A stretch of DNA of 64,000 bases from an uncultured Bacteroidota bacterium (GCA_937124965.1 CAKZLB010000032.1:1-64000); one strand, 5' to 3'. Positions 33,238 through 49,341 are shown, counted from the stretch's first letter. A program made the numbers and translations. The notes: generated from the sequence alone by a model not told the origin.

Positions 33238-33311
33238 GGGCCTATAGCTCAGTTGGTTAGAGCACCTGACTCATAATCAGGTGGTCCATGGTTCGAGTCC
33301 ATGTGGGCCCA
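33238..33311 (+). tRNA. tRNA with CAU anticodon, probably Ile2 (lysidine-modified)
   Basis: Folds as a full cloverleaf: acceptor GGGCCTA with TGGGCCC, D arm GCTC/GAGC, anticodon arm CCTGA/TCAGG with loop CTCATAA, variable TGGTC, T arm CATGG/CCATG, discriminator A. The anticodon is CAT. The loop context 'CTCATAA' and the TAGCTCAG..GGTTAGAGC body resemble tRNA-Ile2 of other bacteria, where C34 becomes lysidine so the tRNA reads AUA; elongator Met cannot be ruled out. The 3' part from the anticodon arm is contained in the 49-bp repeat that also occurs at 43,757, so it is the integration site. Confidence 0.85.
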
Positions 33312-33312
33312 C
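33264..33312 (+). repeat. attL: left 49-bp core repeat of the element
   Basis: Identical base for base to 43757-43805. It covers the anticodon stem-loop, T arm and acceptor 3' strand of the tRNA gene, so insertion here restores the tRNA. Confidence 0.9.
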
Positions 33313-33323
33313 CCAATGAAGAC

Positions 33324-33354
33324 AAGGGTTTCGAGAAATCGAAGCCCTTTTTTG
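33324..33354 (+). terminator. Terminator after the tRNA, supplied by the element
   Basis: An 11-bp stem (AAGGGTTTCGA with TCGAAGCCCTT, one G-T pair) with a GAAA loop and a T-run begins 12 bases after the tRNA core. It lies inside the element, replacing the chromosomal one that is now past attR. Confidence 0.85.
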
Positions 33355-33363
33355 TTTTGTCAT

Positions 33364-33382
33364 TGTAACACATTTGTAACAC
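33364..33382 (+). repeat. Putative integrase arm sites, left end
   Basis: TGTAACAC occurs twice, starting at 33364 and 33375 (11 bp apart), 52 bases from attL. The same motif with the same spacing is found three times near attR (43612, 43623, 43634). Paired occurrence at both ends points to arm-type binding sites for the element's tyrosine recombinase. Confidence 0.65.
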
Positions 33383-33497
33383 TATCCCACTTTTAGTCTT
33401 GTAAAAACTTACTATCAAAGTTCCGCATGGTACAATTATCGTTTTATTCATCAAACACAGAATTGGAAATGCTTATTTTTGAGAAAAAGACCTAAAC

Positions 33498-34334
33498 ATG
33501 AACTTTTTTGCTCTAGACGTTGAAACTGCCAACGCAGACTATTCTAGCATTTGCCAAATCGGAATCGCTCAATTCAAAAATGGCGAAATCGTACAAACGT
33601 GGACACAACTAATAAACCCTGAAACCCATTTCGATTTTATGAATACGATGATTCACGGTATTGGGGAAATAGATGTCGAAGGATGTCCAACATTTAAAGA
33701 ATATATTTTACAGATTGAGCATATTCTAAAAGGTGAATTTATAGTTCACCACATGCCTTTTGACAGAACCGCAATAAATAGAGCTTGCATTAAAGCTGAA
33801 ATCCCTTTACTTGAAGTTGAATGGATTGATACTGCAAGAGTTGCGAGACGTACATGGAATCAATTTGCTAAAAAAGGCTATGGACTGTCAAATCTTGCCA
33901 ATTTCTTAAATATCCAATTTGAACATCATGATGCTTTAGAAGATGCAATGACAGCAGGAAAAATATTTATAAAAGCATTAGAAGTTAATCCTAACCCATT
34001 AAAGGAAGTACAACGACTTTCGACCTACAATCCACCTATTCGATTGGAAGGAGTTGCAGACGGTGTACTTTCTGGAGAATTAGTTGTATTTACGGGATCA
34101 TTGACATCACCAAGAAAAGAAATGGCCGAAATGGCTGCATCTTTTGGCTGCGATGTAAAAGACAGGTTAACGCTTAAAACAACAATTCTTGTGGTTGGCC
34201 TACAAGATCAAAACAAACTAAACGGTCACGTCAAAAGCAGTAAACACCGTAAAGCAGAAGAACTTATTAAAAATGGTCACCCAATTAGAATTATGTCCGA
34301 AACTGACTTCTTAGAATTAGCAAACTACTTATAA
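33498..34334 (+). CDS. DnaQ-like 3'-5' exonuclease fused to a BRCT domain
   Basis: 278 residues. Residues 1-165 form a DEDDh exonuclease of the DNA polymerase III epsilon family: FFALDVETANADY (first Asp-Glu), FIVHHMPFDRTAI (second Asp), and HHDALEDAMTAG (His and last Asp). Residues 185-275 are a BRCT domain (GELVVFTGSLTSPRKEMAEMAASFGCDVKD, ending in the IRIMSETDFLELA strand-helix). The fusion is not rare in Bacteroidota and suggests a role in DNA repair or replication. It is the first gene inside the element after attL, and its stop overlaps the next start by one base (TAATG), so it is coupled to the membrane-protein gene. Confidence 0.85.
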   Translation: MNFFALDVETANADYSSICQIGIAQFKNGEIVQTWTQLINPETHFDFMNTMIHGIGEIDVEGCPTFKEYILQIEHILKGEFIVHHMPFDRTAINRACIKAEIPLLEVEWIDTARVARRTWNQFAKKGYGLSNLANFLNIQFEHHDALEDAMTAGKIFIKALEVNPNPLKEVQRLSTYNPPIRLEGVADGVLSGELVVFTGSLTSPRKEMAEMAASFGCDVKDRLTLKTTILVVGLQDQNKLNGHVKSSKHRKAEELIKNGHPIRIMSETDFLELANYL

Positions 34335-35038
34335 TGCAAAATATATTTTCATCTGTCTCAACAATATTAATAAGTGACGTAATCGCCTTCCTTGCTTTAA
34401 TCGTTGGGACAATAAGTTTGTGTTGGCAAATTATTGAGAAAAGAAAAAAAAACGAAGACACCTTAACAAACTTGCAGTTTGATACTATTATTCAACTAAT
34501 AAATCACTTAAATAGTAATATCATAGAAATGAAGCTACGGAATGAGGACGGCGTAGGAACAATGTGCGGGGTTACTTTATTAAATTTACCAACCCCACAA
34601 TTTATTGATGAGCACAATAACTATTGCTCTGTACCTGTCTTCTTAGGAGCAAATTCTAACCAGCTCGGAGATCTGAGGAAATTCATCAATAATCCTAAAC
34701 TACCAAAGGAAATAAGTATTGCCCTATCAGAATTATACCTTAACCGAACAACGGTCATTAATGATCGTCTTTGCGCACCTAAGTCCATAATTTTAGAAAC
34801 AAATATTTTTGAACCAGTAACCTTTGATCCTGTTGTTCTAGGAACTTTCGGTTATCGGAAAACAAAGTTTACAAACTACATCGACTTCTACAATACATGT
34901 GATAGCTTGGTACAATCTTTAGTAAATTGGTGTGACAAAAACAAGATACACAACCTTAATATCGTTCCACTTGTTGTCGGTCAATTTGTACTTGACCCAA
35001 AAAAAATATCTTACATAGACAGCAACTCCAAGAACTAA
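34334..35038 (+). CDS. Hypothetical single-pass membrane protein
   Basis: 234 residues with one N-terminal membrane helix (VIAFLALIVGTISLCWQII, near 15-34) followed by a basic patch and a soluble domain; the Lys/Arg after the helix predicts the domain is cytoplasmic. No family recognised. Its start overlaps the exonuclease-BRCT stop by one base, so translation is coupled and the pair may be a two-gene unit on the element, possibly a defence or maintenance pair; this is inference. Confidence 0.6.
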   Translation: MQNIFSSVSTILISDVIAFLALIVGTISLCWQIIEKRKKNEDTLTNLQFDTIIQLINHLNSNIIEMKLRNEDGVGTMCGVTLLNLPTPQFIDEHNNYCSVPVFLGANSNQLGDLRKFINNPKLPKEISIALSELYLNRTTVINDRLCAPKSIILETNIFEPVTFDPVVLGTFGYRKTKFTNYIDFYNTCDSLVQSLVNWCDKNKIHNLNIVPLVVGQFVLDPKKISYIDSNSKN

Positions 35039-35452
35039 CATAAAATTTATCTAAGTCCAACACTTTTCACCTTTTTTGAAACTGGCTTCACACAAAAAGA
35101 TGATAGCTCCGTTGTAATGGTCTTAGATCAGACATTTCCAAATGTCCCCCTACACCCTTTCCAACTTTTCAAAACTTGACATCTTACAGATAGTTGATAG
35201 CTGCGTTTCCATCATCAGGACTTGAACACTTTTAGGTATGTAGTTCAAAACTTGCACGTTCGCAAATAGATAATAGCTGCGTTACGTTATACATTTCCAC
35301 AAATCGTTTTAGACGCCAAAACATGTAAAACTTCCTAAACAACACCATTTAATACCCAACTTTCTTTATCAAGTGCTATGCACTCATTTAGTAAATTTAG
35401 AAACTACTGGACTACCCCCAAAAAAGTTATACTTGCGTTAAATTAAATATAC
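35039..35452 (+). repeat. Gene-free stretch with three copies of the ATAGCTGCGTTTCC-type repeat
   Basis: 414 bases without a gene. Three copies of a degenerate repeat of about 25 bp occur with their GATAGC cores at 35102, 35196 and 35272 (spacing 94 and 76). The rough consensus is acaaATAGatGATAGCTGCGTTTCC. An inverted pair TTGAAC/GTTCAA lies between copies 2 and 3. Three more copies follow within 1.3 kb (36121, 36175, 36568). No small gene is supported here. Confidence 0.6.
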
Positions 35453-36064
35453 ATGGTACAGTTGAGCGGTTTCGGAGAAGGTTTATTAGGATTTATTGGG
35501 TTTTGTTTTGCAATAGCATTGTTGTATATTTTGGTCAGTTTGGTAGGTCGTTTATTCAACACAACTTTTAAAACACGTGATGGATCAGAAATACAACCGT
35601 TTATGACGCCAAAGGAAATTAAAGATGAAAGGCGCAAAAACCTATTACAAAAAAAAATAGAAATACTACACGAATTTGTTCGATTGTCAGGGGTGGATGT
35701 TGAACGACGGGTTGAATTAGAAAAACGTAAAATCGAGGCAGACAGGCGTAAAGAGGAAAGAAGAAAAGAAAATAACACTCAAGCTGATCAATATGATGAG
35801 CTAAAAAAAATTTTCGATATGGATAATATATCGGGAATGTTAAGCTCTCTGCATTCTTCAACGCCTGACTTTTACTTTGATAGTAACGGTACGAGAAAGT
35901 TTTGGTCAAAGATTGTTAATCTGGACAATACGGATTATACGATAGAAAAATACAATAGCCTAAAAGATTTGTACAACCAAAAGGTAATTGACTATGCTAC
36001 CTATAAAAAATCTGCGGAACAACTTTACATCTTAGTGACTTCGAAAAAAGTAACAGATTATTGA
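35453..36064 (+). CDS. Hypothetical membrane protein with charged coil and SHOCT-like end
   Basis: 203 residues. A membrane helix near the N-terminus (GLLGFIGFCFAIALLYILVSLVG), then a long highly charged helix (VELEKRKIEADRRKEERRKE) that should be a coiled coil, and a C-terminal segment YNSLKDLYNQKVIDYATYKKSAEQL that matches the short SHOCT motif ('L..L...GiIt..Ef...K..LL'). Function unknown; SHOCT domains are thought to mediate oligomer formation. Repeats lie on both sides of it. It may be a small cassette of the element. Confidence 0.55.
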   Translation: MVQLSGFGEGLLGFIGFCFAIALLYILVSLVGRLFNTTFKTRDGSEIQPFMTPKEIKDERRKNLLQKKIEILHEFVRLSGVDVERRVELEKRKIEADRRKEERRKENNTQADQYDELKKIFDMDNISGMLSSLHSSTPDFYFDSNGTRKFWSKIVNLDNTDYTIEKYNSLKDLYNQKVIDYATYKKSAEQLYILVTSKKVTDY

Positions 36065-36215
36065 ATTAGTTTGCATCATGTTAAACAGATTCAAAAGTAT
36101 AACTGTCAAATCAAATAGATGATAGCTGCGTTTCCATGATGGATTTTTTGAATTAACACGTCACACAAATAGTTCATAGCAACGTTTCGCTTACCTGAAT
36201 TATTAACTTTGGTGT
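36065..36215 (+). repeat. Two further copies of the degenerate repeat
   Basis: Between the two small genes, copies with GATAGCTGCGTTTCC (core at 36121) and CATAGCAACGTTTCG (core at 36175) lie 54 bases apart. The second is immediately upstream of the next gene. A sixth copy (core 36568) overlaps the stop codon of that gene. Confidence 0.55.
36204..36211 (+). promoter_or_regulatory. Possible -7 promoter box for the 117-residue gene
   Basis: TAACTTTG fits TAnnTTTG and sits 5 bases before the ATG at 36216. A near-leaderless transcript would result. No clear -33 TTTG at proper spacing. Confidence 0.3.
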
Positions 36216-36569
36216 ATGAACGCATTTATTGATTTAGAAGTTAGACGTCTTGAGTTTGAACAAACGTATGCTAAAAAATGGTATTACCGCTTACCGCGTC
36301 CTACTGAGCAAACAAGCATACCACTTCAGGGGTATTATAATGTGAATTACATTTCAAGAATCTTTGAAGGTTACATTTATGACCCTGAGTTAGTACCTTT
36401 TATTGACCCTGACATGCCTTCCGCTGGACGCGTCCTAGTTAGAGGCGACAGGTATTACTCGGAAATGAAAGAAAAAGTCACAATTATTTTTTACTCTGAC
36501 GGACATTATAGTTTTTTTCTAGAAGTGATAAATTATTCAGTTCAAGAACTTTTAAACAAGATTGGATGA
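36216..36569 (+). CDS. Hypothetical protein
   Basis: 117 residues, no family recognised. Polar and beta-like with several aromatic residues (WYYRLPRPTEQTSIPLQGYYNVNY, FYSDGHYSFFLEVI); no signal peptide or membrane helix. Its stop codon TGA is part of a repeat copy (GGATGATAGCAACG), so the gene ends inside the repeat. It is flanked by repeat copies on both sides, like a small cassette. Codon use is AT-rich like the neighbours. The start ATG follows a TAnnTTTG box. Confidence 0.5.
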   Translation: MNAFIDLEVRRLEFEQTYAKKWYYRLPRPTEQTSIPLQGYYNVNYISRIFEGYIYDPELVPFIDPDMPSAGRVLVRGDRYYSEMKEKVTIIFYSDGHYSFFLEVINYSVQELLNKIG

Positions 36570-36718
36570 TAGCAACGTTTCCTAATAGCTGTTTTAAGCC
36601 TGTTTCAAGCCCTTTGACGTTTGGAGACTGGATAAGTACTAACGGAGTGCTATTAGTTGAGTGACGGTAACTTGTGGCTATTATTGAATTAACTTTCAAG
36701 CCAGAGGTATGGCTGAAG

Positions 36719-36753
36719 AGGGGTTGTACTTCATCGTCGCAGCCCCTTTTTTT
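36719..36753 (+). terminator. Intrinsic terminator
   Basis: An 8-bp stem (AGGGGTTG with CAGCCCCT, one wobble pair) followed by seven T. It would end + strand transcription from the small genes before they meet the convergent lipoprotein gene. Confidence 0.75.
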
Positions 36754-36769
36754 ATGAAGTAGAAAAACG

Positions 36770-37528
36770 TCAATTAAAGTTAATTTCACTTCTAATTATT
36801 TCCAGTTCAGGGTTAAAATAAATAAATCCTTTTAACTCTTGTTTTGCCCCTTTGAGCAACGGGTTTTCGATAGTGTATTTGTTTATCCCTTTGAAATAAA
36901 TAGGAGTGCTTCCGTCGATATTGCTATATTTTGAGATACTGTCATTGTATGCCTTTATCGTATCAGAATACTGTATAGCTAAGTCCCAAAAATCCGCAGT
37001 TACATGATTTTTTTCATAACTCTCTGTTCTTTTATAGAACCATGCAAGGGTTTTTATCCAAAATGGGTCACTCTCTTTAAAGTTGTCATAGTTGCTGATT
37101 ATTGAATCCAGCCCATCAATATTATCTGCATAACTATTTATGAAGCTCGACAACCCATAGTTTTTCTTTGCAAAGGCAATGTAGTCTCCGTTCTCCTTGT
37201 GCCCATGTTCATTCTCAAAGTTTCTCAGCTGCTTCAGCTTACTAATAGAATTATAACTCTTTGTTAGGATTTGACAGTGGTCATGGTGAGGATAAATGTA
37301 ATATTCGAATCCAAGTATTGGTTCAATAATCCCGTTTGTTTTTCTCTTAAAAGAGTCATTTAATTCTGAAACCGTTAATGTATCAACCCATTGAAATGAT
37401 TGAGACTTATAATTGATTTCTAAACCCATCGCTTTAGATTTAAGATGTGTCTCTATTTTTTCTTCAATATCACTTTGACATGAAACTAAAGTTAGTGTGG
37501 CAATAAGAAAGATTAGTTTTGTTTTCAT
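36770..37528 (-). CDS. Hypothetical lipoprotein
   Basis: 252 residues. The signal ends in IATLTLVSCQSD, a clear lipobox. The mature part has no recognised domain; it contains repeated aromatic/charged stretches (FEYYIYPHHDHCQILTKS, DPFWIKTLAWFYKRTESYEKN). Its upstream region is the iteron-like repeat block at 37557-37690, so it may be controlled or replicated from there. It is the last gene in the - strand row of the element. Confidence 0.6.
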   Translation of the reverse strand: MKTKLIFLIATLTLVSCQSDIEEKIETHLKSKAMGLEINYKSQSFQWVDTLTVSELNDSFKRKTNGIIEPILGFEYYIYPHHDHCQILTKSYNSISKLKQLRNFENEHGHKENGDYIAFAKKNYGLSSFINSYADNIDGLDSIISNYDNFKESDPFWIKTLAWFYKRTESYEKNHVTADFWDLAIQYSDTIKAYNDSISKYSNIDGSTPIYFKGINKYTIENPLLKGAKQELKGFIYFNPELEIIRSEINFN

Positions 37529-37802
37529 AGTTCGAATATAAAGAAAGGTTCTTTTTTCCCGTGCGTAGTGGTAGGAGAAAAACCTTCGTGCATAATGATA
37601 CTGAATAAATCTTCGTGCGTAGTGACTTGTGAAAAATCTTCATGCGTGCGTGTGACCTACATAAAATCTTCGTTATCGTAATCACTCAAACATTTAAATG
37701 TTGCAAAACGGTAATAGTCTTTTTTTTACGTGTACGAAAACACTTCATAAGAATTGAAACTATCAAAACAAATTTCTTTTTTACGGGTGGGAAAACACTT
37801 CG
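37529..37802. repeat. Iteron-like direct repeats (27-bp period), candidate origin
   Basis: Four direct repeats start at 37557, 37584, 37611 and 37638, exactly 27 bp apart, then a partial one at 37668. The conserved part is CTTCGTGCGTAGTG with A-rich ends (GAAAAAT). Two further repeats of the form TTACGTGTACGAAAACACTTC and TTACGGGTGGGAAAACACTTC lie 55 bp apart (starting near 37726 and 37781). Such evenly phased repeats beside a RepA-like helicase and primase-like gene resemble plasmid replication iterons. A transcription regulator array is the alternative. Confidence 0.55.
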
Positions 37803-39152
37803 TCATTGTGTAACGATTAACACTTGTTTTAACTCATTCAATCGGTTTAGAAAGGGTAAAAATGTCAAATTCCCGTTGTTTGCGTTCACGGTGTTCAGGT
37901 GTTTTTCAATGAACAGTGAACAATCATTTACTGTGCTGCATTTATTCAGTTTCACGGGCTGGGTTGGCAGTTCTAAATTTGAAAAGTAGTTTTCCAGTTC
38001 TGCAATTGAATTGCTCCAGTTTTCGGGTTGTTCCTTTTTAGGTGGTTCAATTCGTTCAGTTTTGAATACCTCAACTTTGGCCAATGGTTCACAAGAGTGG
38101 GTTTCTTTTTCGTCTTGCTTTCTGAAAAGTCGCCAATCCTGTTGAATAAGATAGTCAGCAATGTCTTTGCCTTGTTCCTTGTCCTGCTGTGGTGCTAACT
38201 TTTCAAGTAAGTCTGAAACATGGAAGTAAGTACCCTGTAAACGCTGTTGTATTTCGGTTGCTTTATTGCTCCATAACTCAAAGGCTTTGCCGTCTTTTGA
38301 TAGATCAGGGAACAAATAAACATTCCGACCTTTCAACACTTCGCATTTGTCAATATTTAAGCTGCTCAAATTGTAGACAGCCAACCAAATAAAGTTTGTC
38401 GACTGTTCAGGGAAACCAAAATACAACGTGCCATAAATAGCCGTTTTAGGTGCTTCAACCAACGCAACTGGATTGTTTGGGTATCTTCTTAATAGGTGTT
38501 CGCCAAACAAACAGGAAACCTTTGTTTCGTTCTCATTGTATGCTTTCAACCATTCAGGCAATTGCTTATTTTTTCGGGTGTGGTGCTTTTCAATTATCGA
38601 GTGCAAAAAGTCTGTGCCTTTGGTGTGGTTTTGTTCGTCAAATTGTTTTACCTGTACGGCTCTTACATTATTCTTTACATCAATGAAAGGAAAAGTATTT
38701 CCCCCTGTACGGTATCCATTTTGTACCGTACCTAAATGATACAATGATATTACCTTTTCAATCTCCTTAACTTCAAAAGGAAATGCAACCCGAGCAAGTA
38801 AGTTCTGAATAAATACATTCTTTTCATATCCTGCACGGGTACGGTTAAATACATCAAACGGAATAAATGCCCTTTTGGGCTTGCTTACAGGTCTTTTTAT
38901 TCGTTTTGGTTGCTGTGGCTTCCATTCGGTTTTGTCGCCTTGCTCCTGCTCTCGAATTGCTTTTACATAACCGTCATCATAAGGGTTCACGAAATAACCG
39001 CATTTGCTTTCACGGTCGCAACGTCCGTATTGTTCGGGCAAATATTCGCCTGTTTGAGTATCAATGTATCTTACAAAGCGAGTTTTAGCACATTCAGGGC
39101 AATGGTATTTTTTGCTGCCTTTCTCAAGGGTGTATCTGTGTTCAGTATTCAT
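37803..39152 (-). CDS. Zinc-finger/Toprim primase-like protein (DUF6371 type)
   Basis: 449 residues. The N-terminus holds a zinc finger (YHCPECAKTRFVRY, then GRCDRESKCGYF; Cys 18, 21, 45, 51) like that of CHC2 primases. The middle (NPVALVEAPKTAIYGTLYFG, then KCEVLKGRNVYLFPDLSKDG) resembles a Toprim-type nucleotidyl transferase core (E and DxxxDG). It is probably a primase-related replication protein of mobile elements of Bacteroidota. The gene is 62 bases behind the helicase gene and on the same strand. The activity is inferred from the fold only. Confidence 0.7.
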   Translation of the reverse strand: MNTEHRYTLEKGSKKYHCPECAKTRFVRYIDTQTGEYLPEQYGRCDRESKCGYFVNPYDDGYVKAIREQEQGDKTEWKPQQPKRIKRPVSKPKRAFIPFDVFNRTRAGYEKNVFIQNLLARVAFPFEVKEIEKVISLYHLGTVQNGYRTGGNTFPFIDVKNNVRAVQVKQFDEQNHTKGTDFLHSIIEKHHTRKNKQLPEWLKAYNENETKVSCLFGEHLLRRYPNNPVALVEAPKTAIYGTLYFGFPEQSTNFIWLAVYNLSSLNIDKCEVLKGRNVYLFPDLSKDGKAFELWSNKATEIQQRLQGTYFHVSDLLEKLAPQQDKEQGKDIADYLIQQDWRLFRKQDEKETHSCEPLAKVEVFKTERIEPPKKEQPENWSNSIAELENYFSNLELPTQPVKLNKCSTVNDCSLFIEKHLNTVNANNGNLTFLPFLNRLNELKQVLIVTQ

Positions 39153-39214
39153 ATTTTTACTGTTTTAGTGTTCATAGTGTTCAGGTGTGAACATCGTGAA
39201 CGGTGTGAACGCTT

Positions 39215-40285
39215 TTACATTTTCAAATACTTATTTACTGCACCTAGCGAGATGTTTAATTGCTTAGCAATATCCCTTTGAGAAAACTTCTTTTCGCTTA
39301 ACTCCTTCGCCTGTTCAATTAGACTCTCACGGTCTTTTTCTGAATACTGTTTTAAGTGTTCCCGTTCTGCTCCTAAGTCCAAAAATTCAAATGATAAAAA
39401 ATTGAAAGTCTTATCTAATTGGCAAACAACTACGTTTTCAGTATCGTAAATCATGGCTGTATTTCGTGCTTTTACCTGCTTTATGTATCTCAGGCTTTTA
39501 TCCGAATTGCTTTGCCCAATAGCAAAACAACTATCAATGAAATTGTACAACATCTTACTGCCTCCCAAATCATTCTGTGTAATTGGTCGGCTCAAATCAC
39601 GTTTTGGTGTGTGGGCAAGTGCTAAGATTGAAAGGCTATATTTGCTCTTTAATTCCTTTAAATACTTCATAAGTGGCAAAGCATCTTTTGAGCGTTCCGT
39701 CTCATTCTTTAGATAGGTAATATTGTCAATGATCAAAACTTTTGACTGTGTTTCGATTATACATTGCTCCAATGATTGATTCAGATAATTTTCAAAAGAA
39801 ATTTCTGTTGGTATTTCTGCTTCAGGGTTTATTTCAATTCGCTTAAAATTGTCGTCAAACGAATAATGATTTTCAAACACCTTTTCTGTTTCACTTTTCA
39901 CAGAATATCTTACCTCAAATTGTTTGGCAGAAAGTTCAAAATCAAAGTATAACACTGGCTGTCTTTTTGCCTCAAGGTTAAACCCTCTTATTTGCTGACC
40001 CCTGCTTATGCTATCGGCATTTTGTACCGCTAAAATTGACTTGCCTAAATTGCTATCGGCAAACAGAATACATATTTCGTTTTCGTGCCAAAATTCGCCA
40101 AATAGCATTTCGGGTATTGGTGTGGTCATAGCTTGTTCCAACCATTCGTTTGCTGTTTTGACTTTAAATAGTCCTTTATCCTGCTTTTTTGCCTCCAGTT
40201 CTCGTTGAATTTCTTGGATATGGTCTGTAAACGTTTCAGGTTGCTGCAAGTCCGCAAACTGTGGGTTTATATTATTAGCCGTCAT
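39215..40285 (-). CDS. RepA-like helicase ATPase with C-terminal HTH
   Basis: 356 residues. A RecA-fold ATPase with Walker A ADSNLGKS (residues 76-83) and Walker B KVLIIDNITYLKNE, and the arginine-rich LALAHTPKRDLSRPITQNDLGGSK that is typical for the plasmid RepA/DnaB-like hexameric helicases. The C-terminus has an HTH (KFSQRDIAKQLNISLGAVNKYLKM). The protein would open or process DNA in element replication. It overlaps the 100-residue upstream gene by 4 bases and so is in its operon. Confidence 0.75.
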   Translation of the reverse strand: MTANNINPQFADLQQPETFTDHIQEIQRELEAKKQDKGLFKVKTANEWLEQAMTTPIPEMLFGEFWHENEICILFADSNLGKSILAVQNADSISRGQQIRGFNLEAKRQPVLYFDFELSAKQFEVRYSVKSETEKVFENHYSFDDNFKRIEINPEAEIPTEISFENYLNQSLEQCIIETQSKVLIIDNITYLKNETERSKDALPLMKYLKELKSKYSLSILALAHTPKRDLSRPITQNDLGGSKMLYNFIDSCFAIGQSNSDKSLRYIKQVKARNTAMIYDTENVVVCQLDKTFNFLSFEFLDLGAEREHLKQYSEKDRESLIEQAKELSEKKFSQRDIAKQLNISLGAVNKYLKM

Positions 40286-40584
40286 ATCCCAAAAAGATTT
40301 AATTGGTTATCAAAAGGGGCTCGCTCGGGGTTGGTGGTTAAATACCACGCTTTGAAACCTGTCTCTTTACATATCTTCTTTTCTATTTCCCAAAGTCGTC
40401 CTGCCTTTTCTAAATCTCGTTTGTATCTACAAATATTTTTCTGAGGTACTCCCGTTGCAGCAGCAACCATTGAAGCGGTTGCATTATGCTGTTGTAAGTA
40501 CAGAAATATGGTTTTCAACTGGCTATTAAAATCTGTATCTTTACCCTGTCTTTTATACAAAGGGTTGTTGTTAGTGCTTTCCAT
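40282..40584 (-). CDS. Small winged-helix-like DNA-binding protein
   Basis: 100 residues. The segment DFNSQLKTIFLYLQQHNATASMVAAATGVPQKNICRYKRDLEKAGRLW has the scheme of a helix-turn-helix with a C-terminal wing (tri-helix; ATGVPQKNICRYKRDLE as recognition helix). The rest shows no domain. It lies between the Xis-like and the helicase genes with 1- and 4-base overlaps; a role as repressor or loader is inference. Confidence 0.6.
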   Translation of the reverse strand: MESTNNNPLYKRQGKDTDFNSQLKTIFLYLQQHNATASMVAAATGVPQKNICRYKRDLEKAGRLWEIEKKICKETGFKAWYLTTNPERAPFDNQLNLFGI

Positions 40585-40937
40585 TACTTCAACCCTTTTT
40601 TATTGTTAGATAAATACGCTTCCGCTTTCTGCTCTATTTCAGCGTTTGATTTCTTGCGCCCTTGTTTTAACCATTCATCAATTTCAGACTTCAGGAAATA
40701 GACTTTTTTACCACGTTTATAGTGTGGTACTTCTTGACGAGAAATTTTACTGTACCAAGTGGGTTTTTTGCGCTTCTCAGGATCGTACTTTACAAGATCG
40801 TTGAGATCAAGCCATTGTTGAGATTGTTCTGTGGGTTCTACCTTTGTTGGTTGAATTTCTGCTTGTGCTTCTTTAATCCAACGTTTAAAAATTGGTTCTA
40901 ACTTAGATAAAGGCACGTTAAAGAATACTTGTTCCAT
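40584..40937 (-). CDS. MerR/Xis-like HTH protein, probable excisionase
   Basis: 117 residues. The central segment (WLDLNDLVKYDPEKRKKPTWYSKISRQEVPHYKRGKKVYFLKSEIDEWL) is the 'helix-turn-helix domain, excisionase type' common on Bacteroidota elements: a small winged helix that directs integrase to excise. The N-terminus has ELEPIFKRWIKEA-like text. It is the first gene of the row with the helicase and starts 31 bases from an inverted repeat at 40968-40993, its likely operator. Confidence 0.65.
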   Translation of the reverse strand: MEQVFFNVPLSKLEPIFKRWIKEAQAEIQPTKVEPTEQSQQWLDLNDLVKYDPEKRKKPTWYSKISRQEVPHYKRGKKVYFLKSEIDEWLKQGRKKSNAEIEQKAEAYLSNNKKGLK

Positions 40938-40967
40938 TTGTAAATGTTTTTCTGCAAATACAAAAGG

Positions 40968-40993
40968 TGTAACCCCTCAGGTAACTGGTTACA
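40968..40993. promoter_or_regulatory. Inverted repeat, possible operator of the Xis-helicase operon
   Basis: TGTAACC (40968-40974) and GGTTACA (40987-40993) form a perfect 7-bp inverted repeat with 12 bases between, upstream of the Xis-like gene. It resembles a dimer binding site. The first arm has TGTAAC in common with the TGTAACAC arm repeats of the element ends. Confidence 0.45.
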
Positions 40994-41016
40994 GTTTAAA
41001 AGATAAACGTAAACAC

Positions 41017-42267
41017 TTAGTATTCAGGGTTATTTTCATTTAAAAAAATTATATCGTTCTCAACTTTAGTAACCGTCTGTTTGTAGTTTTTGCTAAGAAA
41101 TGGCATAATCAATTCAAGTTTATTAATCGGGTAATTGTTCATCACGTTTATACGTCTCTTAGCCTCATAATACTCAACTTTGAAATTTTTAGAACTTGTA
41201 TGGATTTTGTGTTTACTCATAAAGTCCAAAATTCTATTCAATACTGTTTTTGCATTTGAGGTCAATTTTGTCTCTTCTGCATAATAAAATATGGTTGCCC
41301 ATTCAAGTACACTAAACTGTGTTTCATTTTCAATTTTTTGAATCGCATTTGTTAAGTATGTCTTTGCAAATTGTAGTTGCGTCCCGACAAAAGGAAAAAG
41401 TTTGTTTTGCATGGCTTTGAAGTCAGGGAAGGTTTCTATTTTATTGGTTCGCGAATTGACCTTGTTATAAGTAGGAATTTCCAAACCTACTTCAATACAT
41501 TTATTTTGAACCGCCTCTATAATCGTCTCATTAAATACCATATTCTCAAAAACCTCTAACTCAAAAAGAGCTTTTTCGGTAAACTCCTTTTCAAAGTTGT
41601 TGGTTAAACCTTTAAGATAGTTCATTACCTCAATATCAGAAATCTCTGTGTTGGATTCCTCGTTTAATTTAAAAACATAGCGTTTTAAGTCTATCCATTT
41701 TGATTCGTTAGCGGCAACATTTAACTGTTCTAATGTGCCTATTATCTTGTCATCATAGTCAACTAAAATTCTATGTCTCTCAATACTCTTAATGTTGCTA
41801 ATAGTTGATAAAAATTCTAGATAGCTTGTTTTCTCATTAATATGACTTGGTTCATTTGGGATGATTGTTTGTAAATGTTCTTCGTAAAATTCAACTAGAC
41901 AAATAGCACGATACGCTTTTAACATTTCAGCAGCTTCCTGCTCCATTGCCTTGCTAAAACTATTTTGGTTCAAGTAAATTTTAGCGTCTCCAGCATCATA
42001 CCATTCTTCGACAAAATACTCAACAATTGTGTCAATCGGATTTTCTCTAAATTTTTTTAGCGCAAAGGGTGTGGAATTGATAAAATTCAAATGATCGTCA
42101 ATCACTTTTTCAAGTGCTTCTATCTGTTTCTCATCGGTTCTATACGCCTTACCAATTTGCAGTCTATAACTTATTGACGCTGCATTTATTTGCCATTTTA
42201 GCACCTCTCGAACCCTTTCTTCAAATTCTATTTGCTCAGAACACTTTGATTTTTTTTTATGGTACAT
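41017..42267 (-). CDS. Hypothetical protein on the element
   Basis: 416 residues from the ATG at 42267; the open frame goes 16 codons further but there runs over the integrase stub in another frame and is rejected. Mostly helical and charged (EIEFEERVREVLKWQINAAS, QEAAEMLKAYRAICLVEFYEEHL). No domain recognised; a distant resemblance to RteC-like regulators is too weak to use. It starts 11 bases inside the remnant of a tyrosine recombinase and follows the intact integrase gene on the same strand. Confidence 0.55.
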   Translation of the reverse strand: MYHKKKSKCSEQIEFEERVREVLKWQINAASISYRLQIGKAYRTDEKQIEALEKVIDDHLNFINSTPFALKKFRENPIDTIVEYFVEEWYDAGDAKIYLNQNSFSKAMEQEAAEMLKAYRAICLVEFYEEHLQTIIPNEPSHINEKTSYLEFLSTISNIKSIERHRILVDYDDKIIGTLEQLNVAANESKWIDLKRYVFKLNEESNTEISDIEVMNYLKGLTNNFEKEFTEKALFELEVFENMVFNETIIEAVQNKCIEVGLEIPTYNKVNSRTNKIETFPDFKAMQNKLFPFVGTQLQFAKTYLTNAIQKIENETQFSVLEWATIFYYAEETKLTSNAKTVLNRILDFMSKHKIHTSSKNFKVEYYEAKRRINVMNNYPINKLELIMPFLSKNYKQTVTKVENDIIFLNENNPEY

Positions 42268-42377
42268 ACAAATCCAGTTTAATTTTACCCGTTGCCTTCC
42301 TTTTCGCTTCATCAACTACTTTGGCATAAATCTGTGTTGTTTTTAGGTTCTTATGTCCCAACATCTTTGAAACGGTT
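42257..42377 (-). pseudogene. C-terminal remnant of a second tyrosine recombinase
   Basis: Directly after the integrase stop, in another frame, about 38 codons read ...LTKTVSKMLGHKNLKTTQIYAKVVDEAK... to a TAA at 42257. This is the box II end of a tyrosine recombinase, with GHKNLKTTQIYA holding the second His and the catalytic Tyr. The rest of the gene is missing. It may be the result of recombination between two elements. Not expressed as a functional enzyme as it lacks the catalytic Arg-His-Arg. Confidence 0.75.
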
Positions 42378-43595
42378 TTAGTTAGCTTTCTTGAATGCTA
42401 TTAGTGAATCGGTCTTATCTTGTATTTGTTCGTTCTCGAAGCTATCTAAATAGCTTTCTGTAACACTCATTGAACTATGACCAAGTAGTTCGCTTATCAT
42501 TTCTGTTTGTACCCCTGAACGCTTTAATACCGTGGCAAAAGAATGCCTAGCAAAATACGTGGTGACGGTTTTATTTATTCCTTCTGCAATTGCAATTTTT
42601 TTGACGTATTTATTTATTTTTTTTGTTAGTTGTTTTCCAGCTTTTCTCATTTGCAAAGCGTCCATCTTATTACTGAAATGTGGGAATATGTAAGCATCTT
42701 TATTTAGAGAAGGAATGGACCACTTTTTTATTATTGTTAAACTATCTGCTTTTAAAGCAACAGTTATAGTTTTTTGTTCTTTGTTACTTCTTTCGGTTTT
42801 GGCTCTTTTATAAGTGAGAATATTTCCATCAATATTCTTCCATTTAAGTAAACATAAATCTTTGACGTTCATGCCGTTGGATAAGTACATAAATATCCAG
42901 TAATCTTTTGCCATTTCCATCGCGCTATTTTTAACCGCAACATGATTGTATATTTTACCTATTTCGTCAAGTGTTAACGCTTTTTTTGTGTTCTTACTTG
43001 TTGGTATGGTGTACTTACCCTTTCCAAATGGGTATGCTGATTTATCAATTACATGTTCATTATAAACCGCTCGAAGACTTCTTAAATAAATGCCAACTGT
43101 TGAAATACTTCGACCATTATCTGTCATCCATTTTTGATATTTCTTCAAAAACTTTGGTGTTATTTCGGCAAATGTTAGTCCTGACCTAAACTCCGAAATA
43201 CTATTTTTTGCACATTCATAACTTGAAGCTGTCCCAAGCCTATTTTCAAGTTTTAATTCGTCTATGTATTTGTCAAATGCAAATGATACGCTATTAGCCG
43301 TATTTCTATTCTCTAAAAATTTCTCCTGAAAAGCATCAAATGAAAAAATATGAAGATCTTTAATTACATCATTGGCTTTATTTTCAAAATACGAAATCTT
43401 CTTATTAAATTCTTTCTGCTCGTTGGTTTTCCGTTTGCCGAATAATGTTTGCTCAAATTCGGAAGGTGTTAAGTCTATTCCAGTAGAATAGTATTTGCGT
43501 TTGCGGTTATACGTGACTTTTATCTTAACTGAACAAAGTCCATTCTTTTTTGGTCTGATCGAATCTAAATAAACTGCTGTGTGGGCTTTTAACAT
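42378..43595 (-). CDS. Tyrosine recombinase (site-specific integrase)
   Basis: 405 residues with an N-terminal arm-binding domain (HTAVYLDSIRPKKNGLCSVKIKVTYNRKRKYYSTGIDL), a SAM-like core-binding domain and the catalytic domain. Motifs: YFARHSFATVLKRSG (Arg-His), LLGHSSMSVTESYL (His and Tyr). At box I, SNGMNVKDLCLLKW has Asn where most family members have the first Arg, a variant known in Bacteroidota integrases. It is adjacent to attR and points into the element, as expected for an island integrase. The recognised site is presumably the 49-bp tRNA core. Confidence 0.88.
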   Translation of the reverse strand: MLKAHTAVYLDSIRPKKNGLCSVKIKVTYNRKRKYYSTGIDLTPSEFEQTLFGKRKTNEQKEFNKKISYFENKANDVIKDLHIFSFDAFQEKFLENRNTANSVSFAFDKYIDELKLENRLGTASSYECAKNSISEFRSGLTFAEITPKFLKKYQKWMTDNGRSISTVGIYLRSLRAVYNEHVIDKSAYPFGKGKYTIPTSKNTKKALTLDEIGKIYNHVAVKNSAMEMAKDYWIFMYLSNGMNVKDLCLLKWKNIDGNILTYKRAKTERSNKEQKTITVALKADSLTIIKKWSIPSLNKDAYIFPHFSNKMDALQMRKAGKQLTKKINKYVKKIAIAEGINKTVTTYFARHSFATVLKRSGVQTEMISELLGHSSMSVTESYLDSFENEQIQDKTDSLIAFKKAN

Positions 43596-43611
43596 ATTGA
43601 CGAATAATTAT

Positions 43612-43641
43612 TGTAACACATTTGTAACACAAATGTAACAC
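43612..43641 (+). repeat. Putative integrase arm sites, right end
   Basis: Three direct repeats of TGTAACAC at 43612, 43623 and 43634, each 11 bp apart, just upstream of the integrase start codon and 116 bases from attR. The left end has two copies with the same spacing. Probably arm sites for the integrase and possibly for autoregulation of its gene. Confidence 0.65.
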
Positions 43642-43756
43642 AACAACACAAAATAAACCGCTATTAAATCGAACCCAATAAAGCCAAAACCGTTGTAAAC
43701 AAATGGTTCAAGTACTATTATTTATAAAATGGCTATTTGTTTGTTTTGTAGTTCAG

Positions 43757-43805
43757 ACCTGACTCATAATCAGGTGGTCCATGGTTCGAGTCCATGTGGG
43801 CCCAC
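43757..43805 (+). repeat. attR: right 49-bp core repeat, tRNA 3' part
   Basis: Identical to the anticodon-arm to 3'-end part of the tRNA at 33264-33312. The 5' part of the tRNA is absent here (preceding bases differ), so this is a truncated copy and not a functional tRNA gene. Confidence 0.9.
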
Positions 43806-43818
43806 AGTTTTATCAGTT

Positions 43819-43854
43819 AAACCCTTTCAAATCAGGCATTTGGAAGGGTTTTTT
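43819..43854 (+). terminator. Terminator after attR (original tRNA terminator)
   Basis: A 14-bp stem (AAACCCTTTCAAAT with ATTTGGAAGGGTTT, one wobble) with a CAGGC loop and a T-run. It follows the attR core by 13 bases at the distance expected for the tRNA's own terminator before the element came in. Confidence 0.85.
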
Positions 43855-43920
43855 GTTGAATAGGTAAAACAATGGTAAAACATCCAGGATTATTTTAGCT
43901 CATATAAGTGCGTTGCTCCT

Positions 43921-44619
43921 CTATTCCACCACAGACCGCAATAGATGTAGTTTGTAATATGCAAAATTCCTTTTAGCCAAATGGTTGATAAGATATATTG
44001 ATATCTGGTCAGATGGGACAACAGATGTTAGACGGAAGTTTGTTTGCTTACATAATGATTCATAACTATTACCCTGTATTTCTTGTAAATATTTAATGTT
44101 ATGTTCAGGACTATTACCTCGTTCATCTTTCAACCAACTTATTGGCAAATCATCTAGCCCAATAAGTATAGGTGACGACCTTAACCGAAGTAAATTAAAT
44201 AGATCAGGGTTATCATTTGCTAAATCTTTTACAATGGAGATGTCATGCTTTATAAGCTCTTCAATAAATTTTAACGTATATGAAACAAATTCGGAACCGT
44301 ATAGATTGCTAACTGCATAGTTGCTTGCTGTTTCCATAGACGGAGACAAATATGTTTGCCCGTGCTGATAATTAAAAGATTTTGTCACTTCTTGCTTTAT
44401 CATTTTGTTAAATGACACAAAGTTTTTTTGATACAGTATTGACTCACTTATATGTTCTTTGGCGAGTTCAAACACAGCAGCAGCAGTCGCTTTAACATTT
44501 AGGTCAGAAATAGGATTACAATATCCTAGACCTTTCTCTAAGATACTATCCATAAATATACTATTTGTGCCATGGTACAGAGTAACTTTTAACTTACCAT
44601 TTTCTTCTATATTTTTCAT
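43921..44619 (-). CDS. ADP-ribosyltransferase-like protein
   Basis: 232 residues. Residues 13-30 (TLYHGTNSIFMDSILEKG) match the first ART-fold motif ('yHGT...n..sI...GL') and GQTYLSPSMETASNYA (near 86-101) the second motif ('yl....A..YA'), and the end (SVVPSDQISIYL) may be the third strand with its acidic or glutamine position. These are the features of PARP/ART-type or RNA phosphotransferase-like folds. It may be a toxin of a defence system. The trio with HNH and HEPN genes is on one strand. The catalytic third residue is not certain. Confidence 0.5.
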   Translation of the reverse strand: MKNIEENGKLKVTLYHGTNSIFMDSILEKGLGYCNPISDLNVKATAAAVFELAKEHISESILYQKNFVSFNKMIKQEVTKSFNYQHGQTYLSPSMETASNYAVSNLYGSEFVSYTLKFIEELIKHDISIVKDLANDNPDLFNLLRLRSSPILIGLDDLPISWLKDERGNSPEHNIKYLQEIQGNSYESLCKQTNFRLTSVVPSDQISIYLINHLAKRNFAYYKLHLLRSVVE

Positions 44620-44700
44620 TTAGTTTGAGTTGATTTAATAATGCAACACCGACAACATAGGTGGTACCCACCTTTCTTATACAACTGGATATCCATACCT

Positions 44701-45531
44701 CTAGTTTATTACAGAATTTCTTATGACACTATTATTAATTGTAAACAAAGTTCGATGCAGTTCCCTTCGATCATCCAAATAGGACAGTTCTAATTCCAAC
44801 CCACTTAGAACCAACGGGACCATAGGCTCTAAAATTTCATCTGCCTCTTTTGACATACCGTGAATATATTTTTCATATCTCGCTTCAATGATAATAGACT
44901 CAAATGGTAGTAAGTGATTTACCTTTGGTAACTCTTCTAATTGACCAAATGTTATGTCAGCAGTTTGCATCACAGATGCATTGTATGCTGTGACTTCAGA
45001 GTTATTGTGGATAACCAAACTAAAATTCCAAGACAAACGCCAATGTGCATATAAATCTGTTCCAGCAGGAATTGGTCTTTCATAAATTTCTTTGTTATAT
45101 GCACTCCACCCTAAATTAGTTCTCCCTCCATGTGACCAAATTAAATCCACTTCTAAAAATGGAAACTTACCGTTCTCATTACTTCTGCCTCCAACAAGCT
45201 TCAACAGATTAGTTTCCTCAGCCGATTCCTTCCATTCCTGTAGGAGTCCAATTGAATAACGTTTGGAATCAACGTCTATTAGCCGTGAGTGAGTTTGGCA
45301 CAACCATATTCCATTGCTTACATGAGCTCTCTGTGCCTCTGACATATTAACGTCATACCGAGGGCCGCCTGGTGATGCTGCTGTAATATGCGCTGCAACA
45401 CCAATGCTTATAACCTCCTCATCCTTTACACCTGGACCAACCGTAGGTTGACCACAATCTGGTTTTGAACAGCGATAACCAACTCTTTTAGCAAGTATCT
45501 CTTTAGTTTTATTTGTAAAATCTGTCCTCAT
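44701..45531 (-). CDS. HNH nuclease with C-terminal beta domain
   Basis: 276 residues. Residues 1-90 form an HNH nuclease of the type fused to many defence effectors: ILAKRVGYRCSKPDCG (Cys 21, 26), GVAAHITAASPGGPRYD (His 48), AHVSNGIWLCQTHSRLID (Asn 73, Cys 78, His 81). The end after residue 105 is beta-rich (HWRLSWNFSLVIHNNSEVTAYNASV) like an Ig-like fold and may be a sensor. HNH domains of this type occur next to SAVED and other sensors of CBASS systems; none is fused here. 81 bases from the ART-like gene. Confidence 0.75.
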   Translation of the reverse strand: MRTDFTNKTKEILAKRVGYRCSKPDCGQPTVGPGVKDEEVISIGVAAHITAASPGGPRYDVNMSEAQRAHVSNGIWLCQTHSRLIDVDSKRYSIGLLQEWKESAEETNLLKLVGGRSNENGKFPFLEVDLIWSHGGRTNLGWSAYNKEIYERPIPAGTDLYAHWRLSWNFSLVIHNNSEVTAYNASVMQTADITFGQLEELPKVNHLLPFESIIIEARYEKYIHGMSKEADEILEPMVPLVLSGLELELSYLDDRRELHRTLFTINNSVIRNSVIN

Positions 45532-45749
45532 GAATTAAGTCTAGCAATCTACAACCATTTATAAATATGTACAAAAGGTAGCTATCAAACTAAATAATAA
45601 TGCGACGCCTACAGTTCGCTTGGGTGTAAATATGTTTGACCCAGAATTGGTCTGATTGAAAGATACAAGAATCTGTTTTTTCTATTTGTCAAACCCAATC
45701 TAATTGCCAGATTAGCAACATACGTTAAATATTAAGATGCGGTAATTTG

Positions 45750-46931
45750 CTAAAAAGGCAATTCCTCCTTATCATCAGATATATCAACAGGCATCCAGGG
45801 ATATTTGTCGGTATCAGTCATAAAATCACTATAAGCATAATTTAAAGACCCCCAAAACTCAACAGGCGTGGTTTCCGTCAATTCCGTATAAAATTCATCA
45901 GTATAAACATACTGATAAATCCCGTCGTCTGCGTCGATAAAACAATTTACAACTTCAATTAGCTTCCCTTGAGCTAAATTATCAGCCTCTATAAGTGCTA
46001 ATTCTTTAGAAATTTCAAAAAGAATTTCTTCAAGTTGCGTCTTTATTGTAGAATAATCTTCGGCTAAAGTGTTTCTACTAAATGTTAGTGAAATTATTTT
46101 TTTTATTTCAAGATCATCTAGATTATCTTCTTTTGCAGTAGCGATTCTCTCAGTACATGAAATTAAGAATTTTGTAAGATTTGGATAATGTAACAATAGA
46201 TTATCAGTTTTTAAATTTGTTAATCTCGTTGTATATCCTTCGTAATAGGCATCTTCCGATAATTTTGGTGGCCTGAATTCTATAAAAAGTTTTATCCAAT
46301 TTTCGTTTTTGCTTTGTTTAAAGCTAATTTTTACCTCAGGGATGCCAATAGTACTTAATTTGTTGTACCAATCGTCATCAGTATTCGTAGGTACCATATT
46401 TGGACAAGATATGTAGTCACTAAAGGTTTTTTCGATTAAAGAAAGACTATGATTAGAGTTTTGTTTCACCAGTTCAATATCACCTTTTTTTAAAGGTCTA
46501 AAATGTGCTAAGGAATTTCGGACATTGCCGATTTCGTCTAGTTTATTTTTCATAATTTCTTTCGACCCAGGAAAATACTTTTTGAAGTACTTCCAATATG
46601 TGTCGGAAGTTATAATACGAATTAATTCGCCACTTGTTAAATGTAAAAGTGGACTTGTAATTACGTAGCCCAAATATGCATAGTTTTTGTCTTGAGACAA
46701 CCTTCTTTTGGCAATTGCACCTATTGTAGAGTTTTCAGCATCGTCGGAGGTTATAGACAAATCTTTCCATTTGTCTTTATGCTCATTTTTTAAGATAATA
46801 TAAACGAACATCCGCAATAAGTTCTCCACTCTGAACAGGATATTAAGAGCTTCAAAATATTCAATTTTTAACCAATGTCCTGGTAAATCATAGATATTAT
46901 CTTTAATATGTTTTGCTCCTTTCCAATTCAC
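45750..46931 (-). CDS. HEPN/Swt1-like protein, putative RNase
   Basis: 393 residues. The helical N-terminal domain has NVRNSLAHFRPL (Arg138, then His143), which is the R-x4-H motif of HEPN RNases, in a Swt1/ApeA-like context; NLLRMFVYIILK lies before. The C-terminal part (residues 180-390) has alternating strands and helices with no recognised domain. HEPN proteins are often toxin or defence effectors cleaving RNA. It is the first of the three genes on the - strand. The start codon lies about 60 bases from a good -7 box. Confidence 0.65.
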   Translation of the reverse strand: MNWKGAKHIKDNIYDLPGHWLKIEYFEALNILFRVENLLRMFVYIILKNEHKDKWKDLSITSDDAENSTIGAIAKRRLSQDKNYAYLGYVITSPLLHLTSGELIRIITSDTYWKYFKKYFPGSKEIMKNKLDEIGNVRNSLAHFRPLKKGDIELVKQNSNHSLSLIEKTFSDYISCPNMVPTNTDDDWYNKLSTIGIPEVKISFKQSKNENWIKLFIEFRPPKLSEDAYYEGYTTRLTNLKTDNLLLHYPNLTKFLISCTERIATAKEDNLDDLEIKKIISLTFSRNTLAEDYSTIKTQLEEILFEISKELALIEADNLAQGKLIEVVNCFIDADDGIYQYVYTDEFYTELTETTPVEFWGSLNYAYSDFMTDTDKYPWMPVDISDDKEELPF

Positions 46932-46986
46932 TTTATACTTTTTTAAGTTGTTCCTAGCTGGCCCATAGGCGAATATAACGTACCTG

Positions 46987-46994
46987 CAAATGTA
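46987..46994 (-). promoter_or_regulatory. Promoter -7 box for the HEPN-HNH-ART row
   Basis: On the - strand TACATTTG matches TAnnTTTG, 55 bases before the HEPN start codon, with a TTTC (TTTG-like) 18 bases upstream. This is the best promoter in the intergenic space and suggests one transcript for the three minus-strand genes, although gaps of 218 and 81 bases could hold others. Confidence 0.45.
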
Positions 46995-47118
46995 TTACTT
47001 TGGTTTGAGCTCGAAACCCCCTGCACACAAAGTTCACCAAGAATAAACCCCCTCCTTGTTCTAAGGAGATAATAACCCCCGTCTGTTTGAGGGTTTTCCG
47101 AATTAAAATAAATCTATT

Positions 47119-47463
47119 ATGGTTACAATTTCAAATTTCAAATCAGCCATCAATGCTGAAGGTGAAGAGTTTTTCTTACTCGAACTTTTAGGTGGCGTGG
47201 AGTCTGTCCAATCCAAGGAGACTGGAAGAATCTATTTAACAGCTAGAAAGGCAACTGTTTCGTCAACGTTTAACGAAAGCACGTGTCAATCCTTAATCGG
47301 CACTAAAATGCCAGGTACAATACAACGAGTAGAGGTCGAACCTTACGCGTATGTCATTCAAGACACAGGTGAGGAGATTACGCTGTCTCATCGTTATGAG
47401 TACGATCCAAATCCCAGTCTGGAGGAAACAGTCTTAGAACGTACGAACGAACTTGTACTTTAA
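47119..47463 (+). CDS. Hypothetical phage-type protein
   Basis: 114 residues without a recognised domain; beta-rich (EFFLLELLGGVESVQSKETGRIYLTARKATVSSTF) with a C-terminal acidic tail. It leads a row of + strand genes (ATPase, DUF3871, HTH, RadC) that resembles the recombination module of mobile elements. A terminator follows it. Upstream the sequence has two small hairpins (47052-47068, 47074-47095) of unknown purpose, maybe a leader. Confidence 0.55.
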   Translation: MVTISNFKSAINAEGEEFFLLELLGGVESVQSKETGRIYLTARKATVSSTFNESTCQSLIGTKMPGTIQRVEVEPYAYVIQDTGEEITLSHRYEYDPNPSLEETVLERTNELVL

Positions 47464-47489
47464 GTAACTCCACACTGGGTACAACACGA

Positions 47490-49340: not shown

Positions 49341-49341
49341 T

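What the first reader, a model, noticed from the sequence alone, without database searches (positions are those of the whole stretch)
33238..43805. A 10.5-kb integrated element with exact boundaries in a CAU-anticodon tRNA gene
Seen: a perfect 49-bp direct repeat (33264-33312 and 43757-43805), an intact tRNA on the left and only its 3' part on the right, a tyrosine recombinase at the right end, and replication-type genes inside. Known: tyrosine integrases of many islands use tRNA 3' ends. Inference: excision would yield a circle with one 49-bp core. The absence of relaxase and conjugation genes suggests it depends on a helper. The rest of the genome beyond attR is again accessory, so the tRNA may be a repeated target.
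Basis: partly seen in the sequence, partly recalled or inferred. Interest (0 to 1): 0.6.

Follow-up and report, generated by a model that had tools for sequence, protein, structure and literature searches.

The report
Two stacked mobile elements in tRNA
A 10.5-kb mobile DNA element sits in the end of a tRNA gene of a Bacteroidota bacterium, with a second, separate 25-kb defence-gene element stacked behind it; it belongs to a widespread family that can apparently cut itself out and copy itself but carries no recognisable transfer gene, so it must travel with a helper.

Summary
Confirmed and extended. The perfect 49-bp repeat (33264-33312, 43757-43805) is the 3' part of a CAU tRNA gene and occurs nowhere else in the genome at up to 3 mismatches. 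It bounds a 10,493-bp element (E1) with a tyrosine integrase, excisionase-like HTH protein, AAA helicase and DUF6371 primase-like protein. Beyond attR lies a second element (E2, 43806-68803, type I restriction and other defence-type genes) with its own integrase and a third, 27-bp core copy just outside the window. Each element has its own paired arm-type sites at both ends (E1 TTGTAACAC, E2 GGTAAAACA, 11-bp spacing); this geometry recurs in 9 of 14 tRNA elements and in none of 4,200 shuffles. Most also carry a tRNA terminator just inside the core. E1 belongs to a Bacteroidota-wide family sharing the replication/excision module of Bacteroides Tn4555-like mobilizable elements, but the relaxase of the gut members was not detected in any of 38 related loci, and the helicase slot is exchangeable. 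A relaxase-free relative exists as a circular 7.7-kb IMG/VR contig. Excision of E1 itself, and whether its helper is conjugative or a phage, are not shown. New variant of a known kind.

The parts
33238..33313 (+). tRNA gene, anticodon CAU (attL side, intact); possibly tRNA-Ile2 (C4-G69, C5-G68, A73) rather than Met
   Evidence: ARAGORN; identity call is inference from the sequence
33264..33312 (+). 49-bp core, left copy (attL)
33324..33357 (+). intrinsic-terminator-like hairpin plus T-run of the tRNA, carried by E1 just inside the core; same hairpin as at the host side of attR2
33362..33382 (+). E1 left arm-type sites, two copies of TTGTAACAC 11 bp apart
33498..34334 (+). cargo: DnaQ-family 3'-5' exonuclease with BRCT domain; matches PADLOC candidate PDC-S48
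34334..35038 (+). cargo: unknown protein, hydrophobic N-terminus
35090..36581 (+). six degenerate copies of a repeat around GATAGCTGCGTTTC between cargo ORFs
35453..36064 (+). cargo: unknown protein with hydrophobic N-terminus
36216..36569 (+). cargo: unknown 117-aa protein
36770..37528 (-). putative lipoprotein, 252 aa, unknown function
37803..39152 (-). primase-like protein: zinc ribbon + DUF6371 + DUF6965
39215..40285 (-). AAA_25 RepA/DnaB-like helicase; 43% identical to the AAA protein of a Tn4555-like element
40282..40584 (-). conserved 100-aa protein, weakly similar to HTH regulators
40584..40937 (-). HTH_17 excisionase-like / AlpA-like DNA-binding protein
41017..42315 (-). accessory gene, 432 aa; conserved C-terminal 100-aa helical domain, variable N-terminus
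42378..43595 (-). E1 tyrosine integrase (405 aa)
43610..43641 (+). E1 right arm-type sites, three copies of (A/T)TGTAACAC at 11-bp spacing
43757..43805 (+). 49-bp core, right copy: attR of E1 and attL of E2
43806..64000 (.). E2, second element, continuing to contig position 68803 outside the window: type I restriction-modification, KAP-type NTPase, HNH proteins, RadC-like protein, integrase at 67391-68674, third core copy at 68777-68803
43821..43857 (+). terminator-like hairpin and T-run carried at the left end of E2
43863..43882 (+). E2 left arm-type sites, two copies of GGTAAAACA 11 bp apart (right pair at 68654 and 68665, outside the window)

Best explanation
E1 is a helper-dependent integrative element. 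Its integrase binds the paired arm-type sites near both ends and exchanges strands inside the 3' half of the CAU tRNA gene. The element brings a copy of that half, so the tRNA stays intact, and also brings a terminator for it. With the HTH_17 protein as a likely directionality factor it would excise as a 10,493-bp circle. The AAA helicase and the DUF6371 primase-like protein would then replicate the circle. It has no detectable relaxase, secretion or capsid gene, so transfer must use another element's machinery: either a relaxase acting in trans on an oriT within E1, or packaging by a phage. A second element, E2, most likely entered the same tRNA earlier. Its different arm-type sites would let each integrase act on its own element although both share the core. 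Shown by sequence: boundaries, gene content, arm-type repeats, terminators, tandem order, family. Inferred: excision, replication, directionality, transfer.
For: Boundaries and uniqueness. Third core and second integrase. Arm-type geometry: left pair 44-59 bp inside the core, right pair 123-149 bp inside, 11-bp spacing, in 9 of 14 tRNA elements, 0 of 4,200 shuffles, 0 of 1,000 interior controls. Terminators: best score 14 or more in 12 of 15 element left ends against 3 of 2,000 random 75-mers. Related integrases at the same tRNA in G008, G001 and G017. Conserved module order in most of 38 loci. No relaxase in those loci. Circular relaxase-free relative, 7,683 bp with a 127-bp terminal repeat. 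Gut relatives carry the same kind of module with a mobilization gene after DUF6371 and are deposited as circles.
Against: No read data or PCR shows the circle or the empty site of E1. No clean empty site exists in the same-genus genomes examined; G004 has a left end with arm sites but no attR and an IS remnant. The own genome has no Bacteroidota-type TraG, so a resident conjugative helper of that type is not seen. A non-canonical relaxase or unknown packaging gene among the unannotated proteins cannot be excluded.
Confidence: 0.85

Rival explanations
1. E1 is a phage satellite of the PICI type: integrase, AlpA-like regulator and helicase-primase, packaged by a helper phage.
For: Gene set and order resemble satellites. 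A DUF5681 protein, which I recall as common near phage terminases (memory, not tested), lies after DUF6371 in the G008 relative, and similar short ORFs occupy that place in L098, L102 and L106 (by eye). A DUF6371 59% identical occurs in an IMG/VR contig with tail-like genes. The circular relative sits in a virus collection.
Against: No terminase, capsid or packaging gene in E1. PHROGs match the DUF5681 protein only to families of unknown function. E1's own integrase and primase have no close match in IMG/VR. IMG/VR membership is itself a prediction.
Confidence: 0.3
2. E1 is a mobilizable element of the relaxase-less kind: it carries an oriT and is moved by the relaxase and secretion system of a conjugative element.
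For: Integrase, helicase, HTH and DUF6371 proteins are kin of Bacteroides mobilizable elements that carry a mobilization gene right after DUF6371. Relaxase-less mobilizable islands are known in Firmicutes and Proteobacteria (PMC5704250).
Against: No oriT was identified. No Bacteroidota TraG in this genome. The only relaxases found in the genome are distant PF03432 proteins on other contigs.
Confidence: 0.45
3. E1 is a decayed island that lost its relaxase and is now stuck.
For: Relaxase present in the gut relatives, absent here.
Against: Core copies still identical, arm sites intact, module ORFs intact. The absence is shared by 38 loci of diverse Bacteroidota, and a relaxase-free relative is circular. 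These fit a functional lineage better than decay.
Confidence: 0.15
4. The repeat is a chance or segmental duplication of a tRNA fragment, or an assembly artefact.
For: Draft assembly of 79 contigs.
Against: Integrase beside the distal core, arm-type sites on both sides, and the same arrangement in independent assemblies.
Confidence: 0.02

Closest known systems
Tn4555-like cfxA elements of Bacteroides (circle CP103138, 10,057 bp) and the related circles OY726037 and NZ_OY725959
   Same: Integrase, excisionase-family HTH, AAA ATPase (43% identical), DUF6371 protein (30%), similar order, circular forms deposited
   Different: They carry a mobilization protein or relaxase right after DUF6371. E1 has none and carries other cargo. 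E1's integrase is closer to the one of the NZ_OY725959 circle (34%) than to that of CP103138 (22%).
NBU1/NBU2 and other canonical Bacteroidota mobilizable elements (PMC5704250)
   Same: Small helper-dependent integrative elements with tyrosine integrase; directionality factor and a further region needed for excision
   Different: Known ones encode relaxases; E1 does not. Direct sequence comparison with NBU1/NBU2 was not made.
Relaxase-less mobile genomic islands such as SGI1 and MGIVflInd1 (PMC5704250)
   Same: Integrase and directionality factor but no relaxase; depend on a conjugative element
   Different: Described in Proteobacteria and Firmicutes; no sequence kinship shown; oriT unknown here
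PICI and PICMI phage satellites
   Same: Integrase, AlpA-like HTH, primase/helicase, small size (recalled and from abstracts, not compared by sequence)
   Different: No packaging gene found in E1; helper phage unknown
tRNA islands as in the Islander database (PMC4383910)
   Same: tRNA regenerated, displaced 3' fragment marks the far end
   Different: Ordinary in this respect; the conserved arm geometry and carried terminator are extra detail

Membership tests
tRNA-targeted tyrosine-integrase genomic island | Intact tRNA at one end and displaced 3' fragment at the other | tested here: met
tRNA-targeted tyrosine-integrase genomic island | Tyrosine integrase gene near one end | tested here: met
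tRNA-targeted tyrosine-integrase genomic island | Paired arm-type repeats inside both ends | tested here: met
tRNA-targeted tyrosine-integrase genomic island | Unoccupied site in close relatives | tested here: inconclusive
   Left flank conserved in G004 and G001; G004 holds a remnant left end; family members G015 and G016 have the tRNA without a recognised integrase within the 13 kb or so read downstream, but with a different left flank
tRNA-targeted tyrosine-integrase genomic island | Excised circle | not testable with these tools
   No reads; only a circular relative seen
Canonical Bacteroidota mobilizable element (Tn4555/NBU type) | Own relaxase | tested here: not met
   Pfam, tblastn and phmmer with three gut relaxases, PF03432 and PF01076
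Canonical Bacteroidota mobilizable element (Tn4555/NBU type) | Shared integrase, HTH, AAA and DUF6371 module | tested here: met
Canonical Bacteroidota mobilizable element (Tn4555/NBU type) | oriT | not tested
   No Bacteroidota oriT model available
Integrative conjugative element | Type IV secretion genes | tested here: not met
   None in E1; no TIGR03783 TraG in the genome
Phage satellite (PICI) | Packaging genes or cos/pac site | tested here: inconclusive
   No packaging gene by Pfam or PHROGs; DUF5681 only in relatives; cos/pac not testable
Prophage | Structural genes | tested here: not met

The most novel reading that the evidence does not exclude
The DUF6371 elements outside the gut are a Bacteroidota-wide lineage of relaxase-free, self-excising and self-replicating satellites with a standard chassis (fixed arm-site geometry, carried tRNA terminator, swappable integrase and swappable helicase). 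Several can stack in one tRNA because each integrase reads its own arm sites, and they move by a helper route not yet described in this phylum.
Probability: 0.4. Interest if true: 0.65.

Novelty: new variant of a known kind. Interest (0 to 1): 0.45.

Why it matters
Elements of this size and build are easily filed as unexplained islands. If the lineage is a functional relaxase-free satellite family, it gives a carrier for restriction and other defence genes in Bacteroidota, and a testable case of how several elements share one tRNA site without cross-excision. The review read here lists relaxase-less mobilizable elements in Firmicutes and Proteobacteria only (PMC5704250, 2017). The conserved arm-site and terminator anatomy gives a simple sequence signature for finding such elements.

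Tried and rejected
Close integrase and DUF6371 relatives in IMG/VR by single protein: none; alignment queries found five DUF6371 relatives and two of the 195-aa protein. Repeats at 35090-36581 as integron attC sites: rejected, since they do not fold better than shuffles and, by eye, lack the attC ends. The accessory 432-aa protein as a hidden relaxase: no match to solved structures by sequence; the model is poor (mean pLDDT 44.5), all helical, and only its C-terminal 100 residues are confident, so no fold search was made. DUF6371 against solved structures: none. The term DUF6371 appears in one held paper, which I did not open.

Full report
Observation. The sequence shows an exact 49-bp direct repeat at 33264-33312 and 43757-43805. 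The left copy lies in the only tRNA gene that ARAGORN finds in the window, anticodon CAU, 33238-33313. The repeat occurs twice in the 4.09-Mb genome at up to three mismatches. The distance gives a 10,493-bp element, E1. The acceptor stem of the tRNA has C4-G69 and C5-G68 and A73, which I take from general knowledge as features of tRNA-Ile2, so the annotation as Met may be wrong; this is inference.

Gene content of E1. From the right end inward on the minus strand: tyrosine integrase (42378-43595), a 432-aa accessory protein, an HTH_17 excisionase-like protein, a 100-aa protein, an AAA_25 helicase, and a DUF6371 zinc-ribbon protein, then a lipoprotein-like ORF. Cargo on the plus strand includes a DnaQ-BRCT exonuclease that matches the PADLOC candidate PDC-S48 and three proteins without family matches.

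What lies beyond attR. A third core copy, 27 bp identical to tRNA positions 50-76, lies at contig position 68777-68803, outside the window. An integrase gene at 67391-68674 precedes it (Arm-DNA-bind_5, SAM_5 and catalytic domains). It is 25% identical to the E1 integrase over the aligned columns. Hence 43806-68803 is a second element, E2, with type I restriction-modification genes, a KAP-type NTPase and HNH proteins. The host side of attR2 carries the same terminator hairpin as E1's left end. Synteny with same-genus genome G004 holds on the left up to the tRNA and resumes at 80039. Because E1 lies next to the intact tRNA, E2 most likely came first; this order is inference.

Arm-type sites. E1 has TTGTAACAC at 33363 and 33374, and at 43611 and 43622 with a third variant about 11 bp further on. 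E2 has GGTAAAACA at 43863 and 43874, and at 68654 and 68665. In an automatic search, 9 of 14 bounded tRNA elements have a 9-mer pair with 11-bp spacing near both ends. None of 300 shuffles per element (4,200 in all) and none of 1,000 interior controls do. Left pairs start 44-59 bp inside the core and right pairs 123-149 bp inside. The related integrases of L080 and L097, which target tRNA-Arg(TCT), have the same TGTAACAC arms as E1, which targets the CAU tRNA. This fits arms being read by the integrase while the core follows the tRNA.

Terminators. Sixteen 75-base stretches just inside the core, or on the host side for attR2, were scored for a hairpin followed by T. Of 15 element left ends, 12 score 14 or more, against 3 of 2,000 random stretches. 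G008 E1 scores 12.5, L102 scores 8, and G052 has none by this measure. The scoring is my own script, not a published terminator model.

Same site in relatives. G008 has the CAU tRNA followed by a 7.4-kb E1-like element (integrase 68%, DUF6371 75%) and then a second element ending at another core copy 33 kb on. G001 and G017 have integrase plus core on contigs separate from the tRNA, and G052 has a 12.8-kb element. The own genome holds another element in tRNA-Val(TAC) with a 46-bp exact repeat. Repeated use of this tRNA is thus not confined to this genome, and stacking is seen in at least one other.

The family. A DUF6371 scan of bacterial genomes gave 38 loci in varied Bacteroidota. Most share the order integrase, accessory gene, HTH_17, 100-aa protein, helicase, DUF6371. 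Exact or near-exact tRNA boundaries of 46-49 bp were found for Met-CAU, Arg-TCT (three), Pro-GGG and Asn-GTT, and shorter ones for Leu-TAA. The helicase slot holds either an AAA_25 protein or a D5/DUF5906 protein between conserved neighbours, and the first 35 or so residues are alike in both.

Relaxase. Human-gut elements with the same kind of module carry a mobilization protein right after DUF6371. Queries with three such proteins found nothing in the 38 loci by tblastn or phmmer. PF03432 is absent from 27 of 37 of those whole genomes and PF01076 from 36 of 37. I did not map the PF03432 hits of the other 10 genomes contig by contig onto the loci; the phmmer search of the loci themselves found none. 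The survey was made through DUF6371, so it says nothing of elements without it, and unknown relaxase types would be missed. Some of the 38 loci are cut by contig ends.

Circular relative. IMG/VR contig 3300043395_004351 carries integrase, accessory gene, HTH_17, AAA_25, DUF6371 and the conserved 195-aa-type protein, and no relaxase or capsid gene that I could recognise by reading its ORFs. It ends in a 127-bp terminal repeat, which indicates a 7,683-bp circle. The record does not say whether it came from a virion fraction.

Mechanism and rivals. The integration model rests on anatomy and family knowledge; excision, replication and transfer are inferred. A trans-acting relaxase (oriT only) is slightly favoured over phage packaging because of kinship with mobilizable elements, but neither is tested. 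Decay is less likely given intact cores, arms and ORFs.

Novelty. tRNA islands and relaxase-less islands are known kinds. A 2017 review lists relaxase-less ones in Firmicutes and Proteobacteria (PMC5704250). The term DUF6371 occurs in one held paper only, and subscription papers are not held. I call it a new variant of a known kind.

Noticed in passing
window 35090-36581; L009:757-779; L067:8413-8435: A degenerate repeat around CAAATAGTTGATAGCTGCGTTTC: six copies between E1 cargo ORFs, one on small contig C35 and one in the tRNA-Val element of the same genome. At 2 mismatches, 7 forward matches in this genome and at most one in any of 106 other genomes of the order, about the level of the reversed-pattern control. 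Does not fold; function unknown.
   Followed up: partly
G000 C42:35103-42632 (L067:5103-12632): A further tRNA element in the same genome, in tRNA-Val(TAC), 46-bp exact repeat, integrase about 33% identical, with what look by eye like a DNA methyltransferase and a restriction endonuclease.
   Followed up: partly
L054:8562-10043 and window 39215-40285: Helicase exchange: D5/DUF5906 type against AAA_25 type in the same slot, with a shared N-terminal peptide INPxFxDLQQPET.
   Followed up: partly
L097, L080, L109, L092, L082, L079, L091, L088, L131: A conserved 195-aa protein with a C-P-x-T-x-K-R-C-R motif follows DUF6371 in many relatives but not in E1.
   Followed up: partly
L126:66-1337: A DUF6371 protein 59% identical lies beside tail-like genes in an IMG/VR contig.
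   Followed up: no
G000 C74:132725 and C13:43338 (L124, L125): The two PF03432 relaxases of this genome do not look like Bacteroidota types to my eye; possible foreign contigs or other mobile elements.
   Followed up: no
L057:6492-9677: In same-genus G004 the tRNA is followed by a left end with two TGTAACAC arm sites and an IS remnant, without attR: apparently a decayed element.
   Followed up: partly
L062:6308-6382 and 13384-13459: In G014 a second, almost complete copy of the tRNA lies 7 kb downstream.
   Followed up: no
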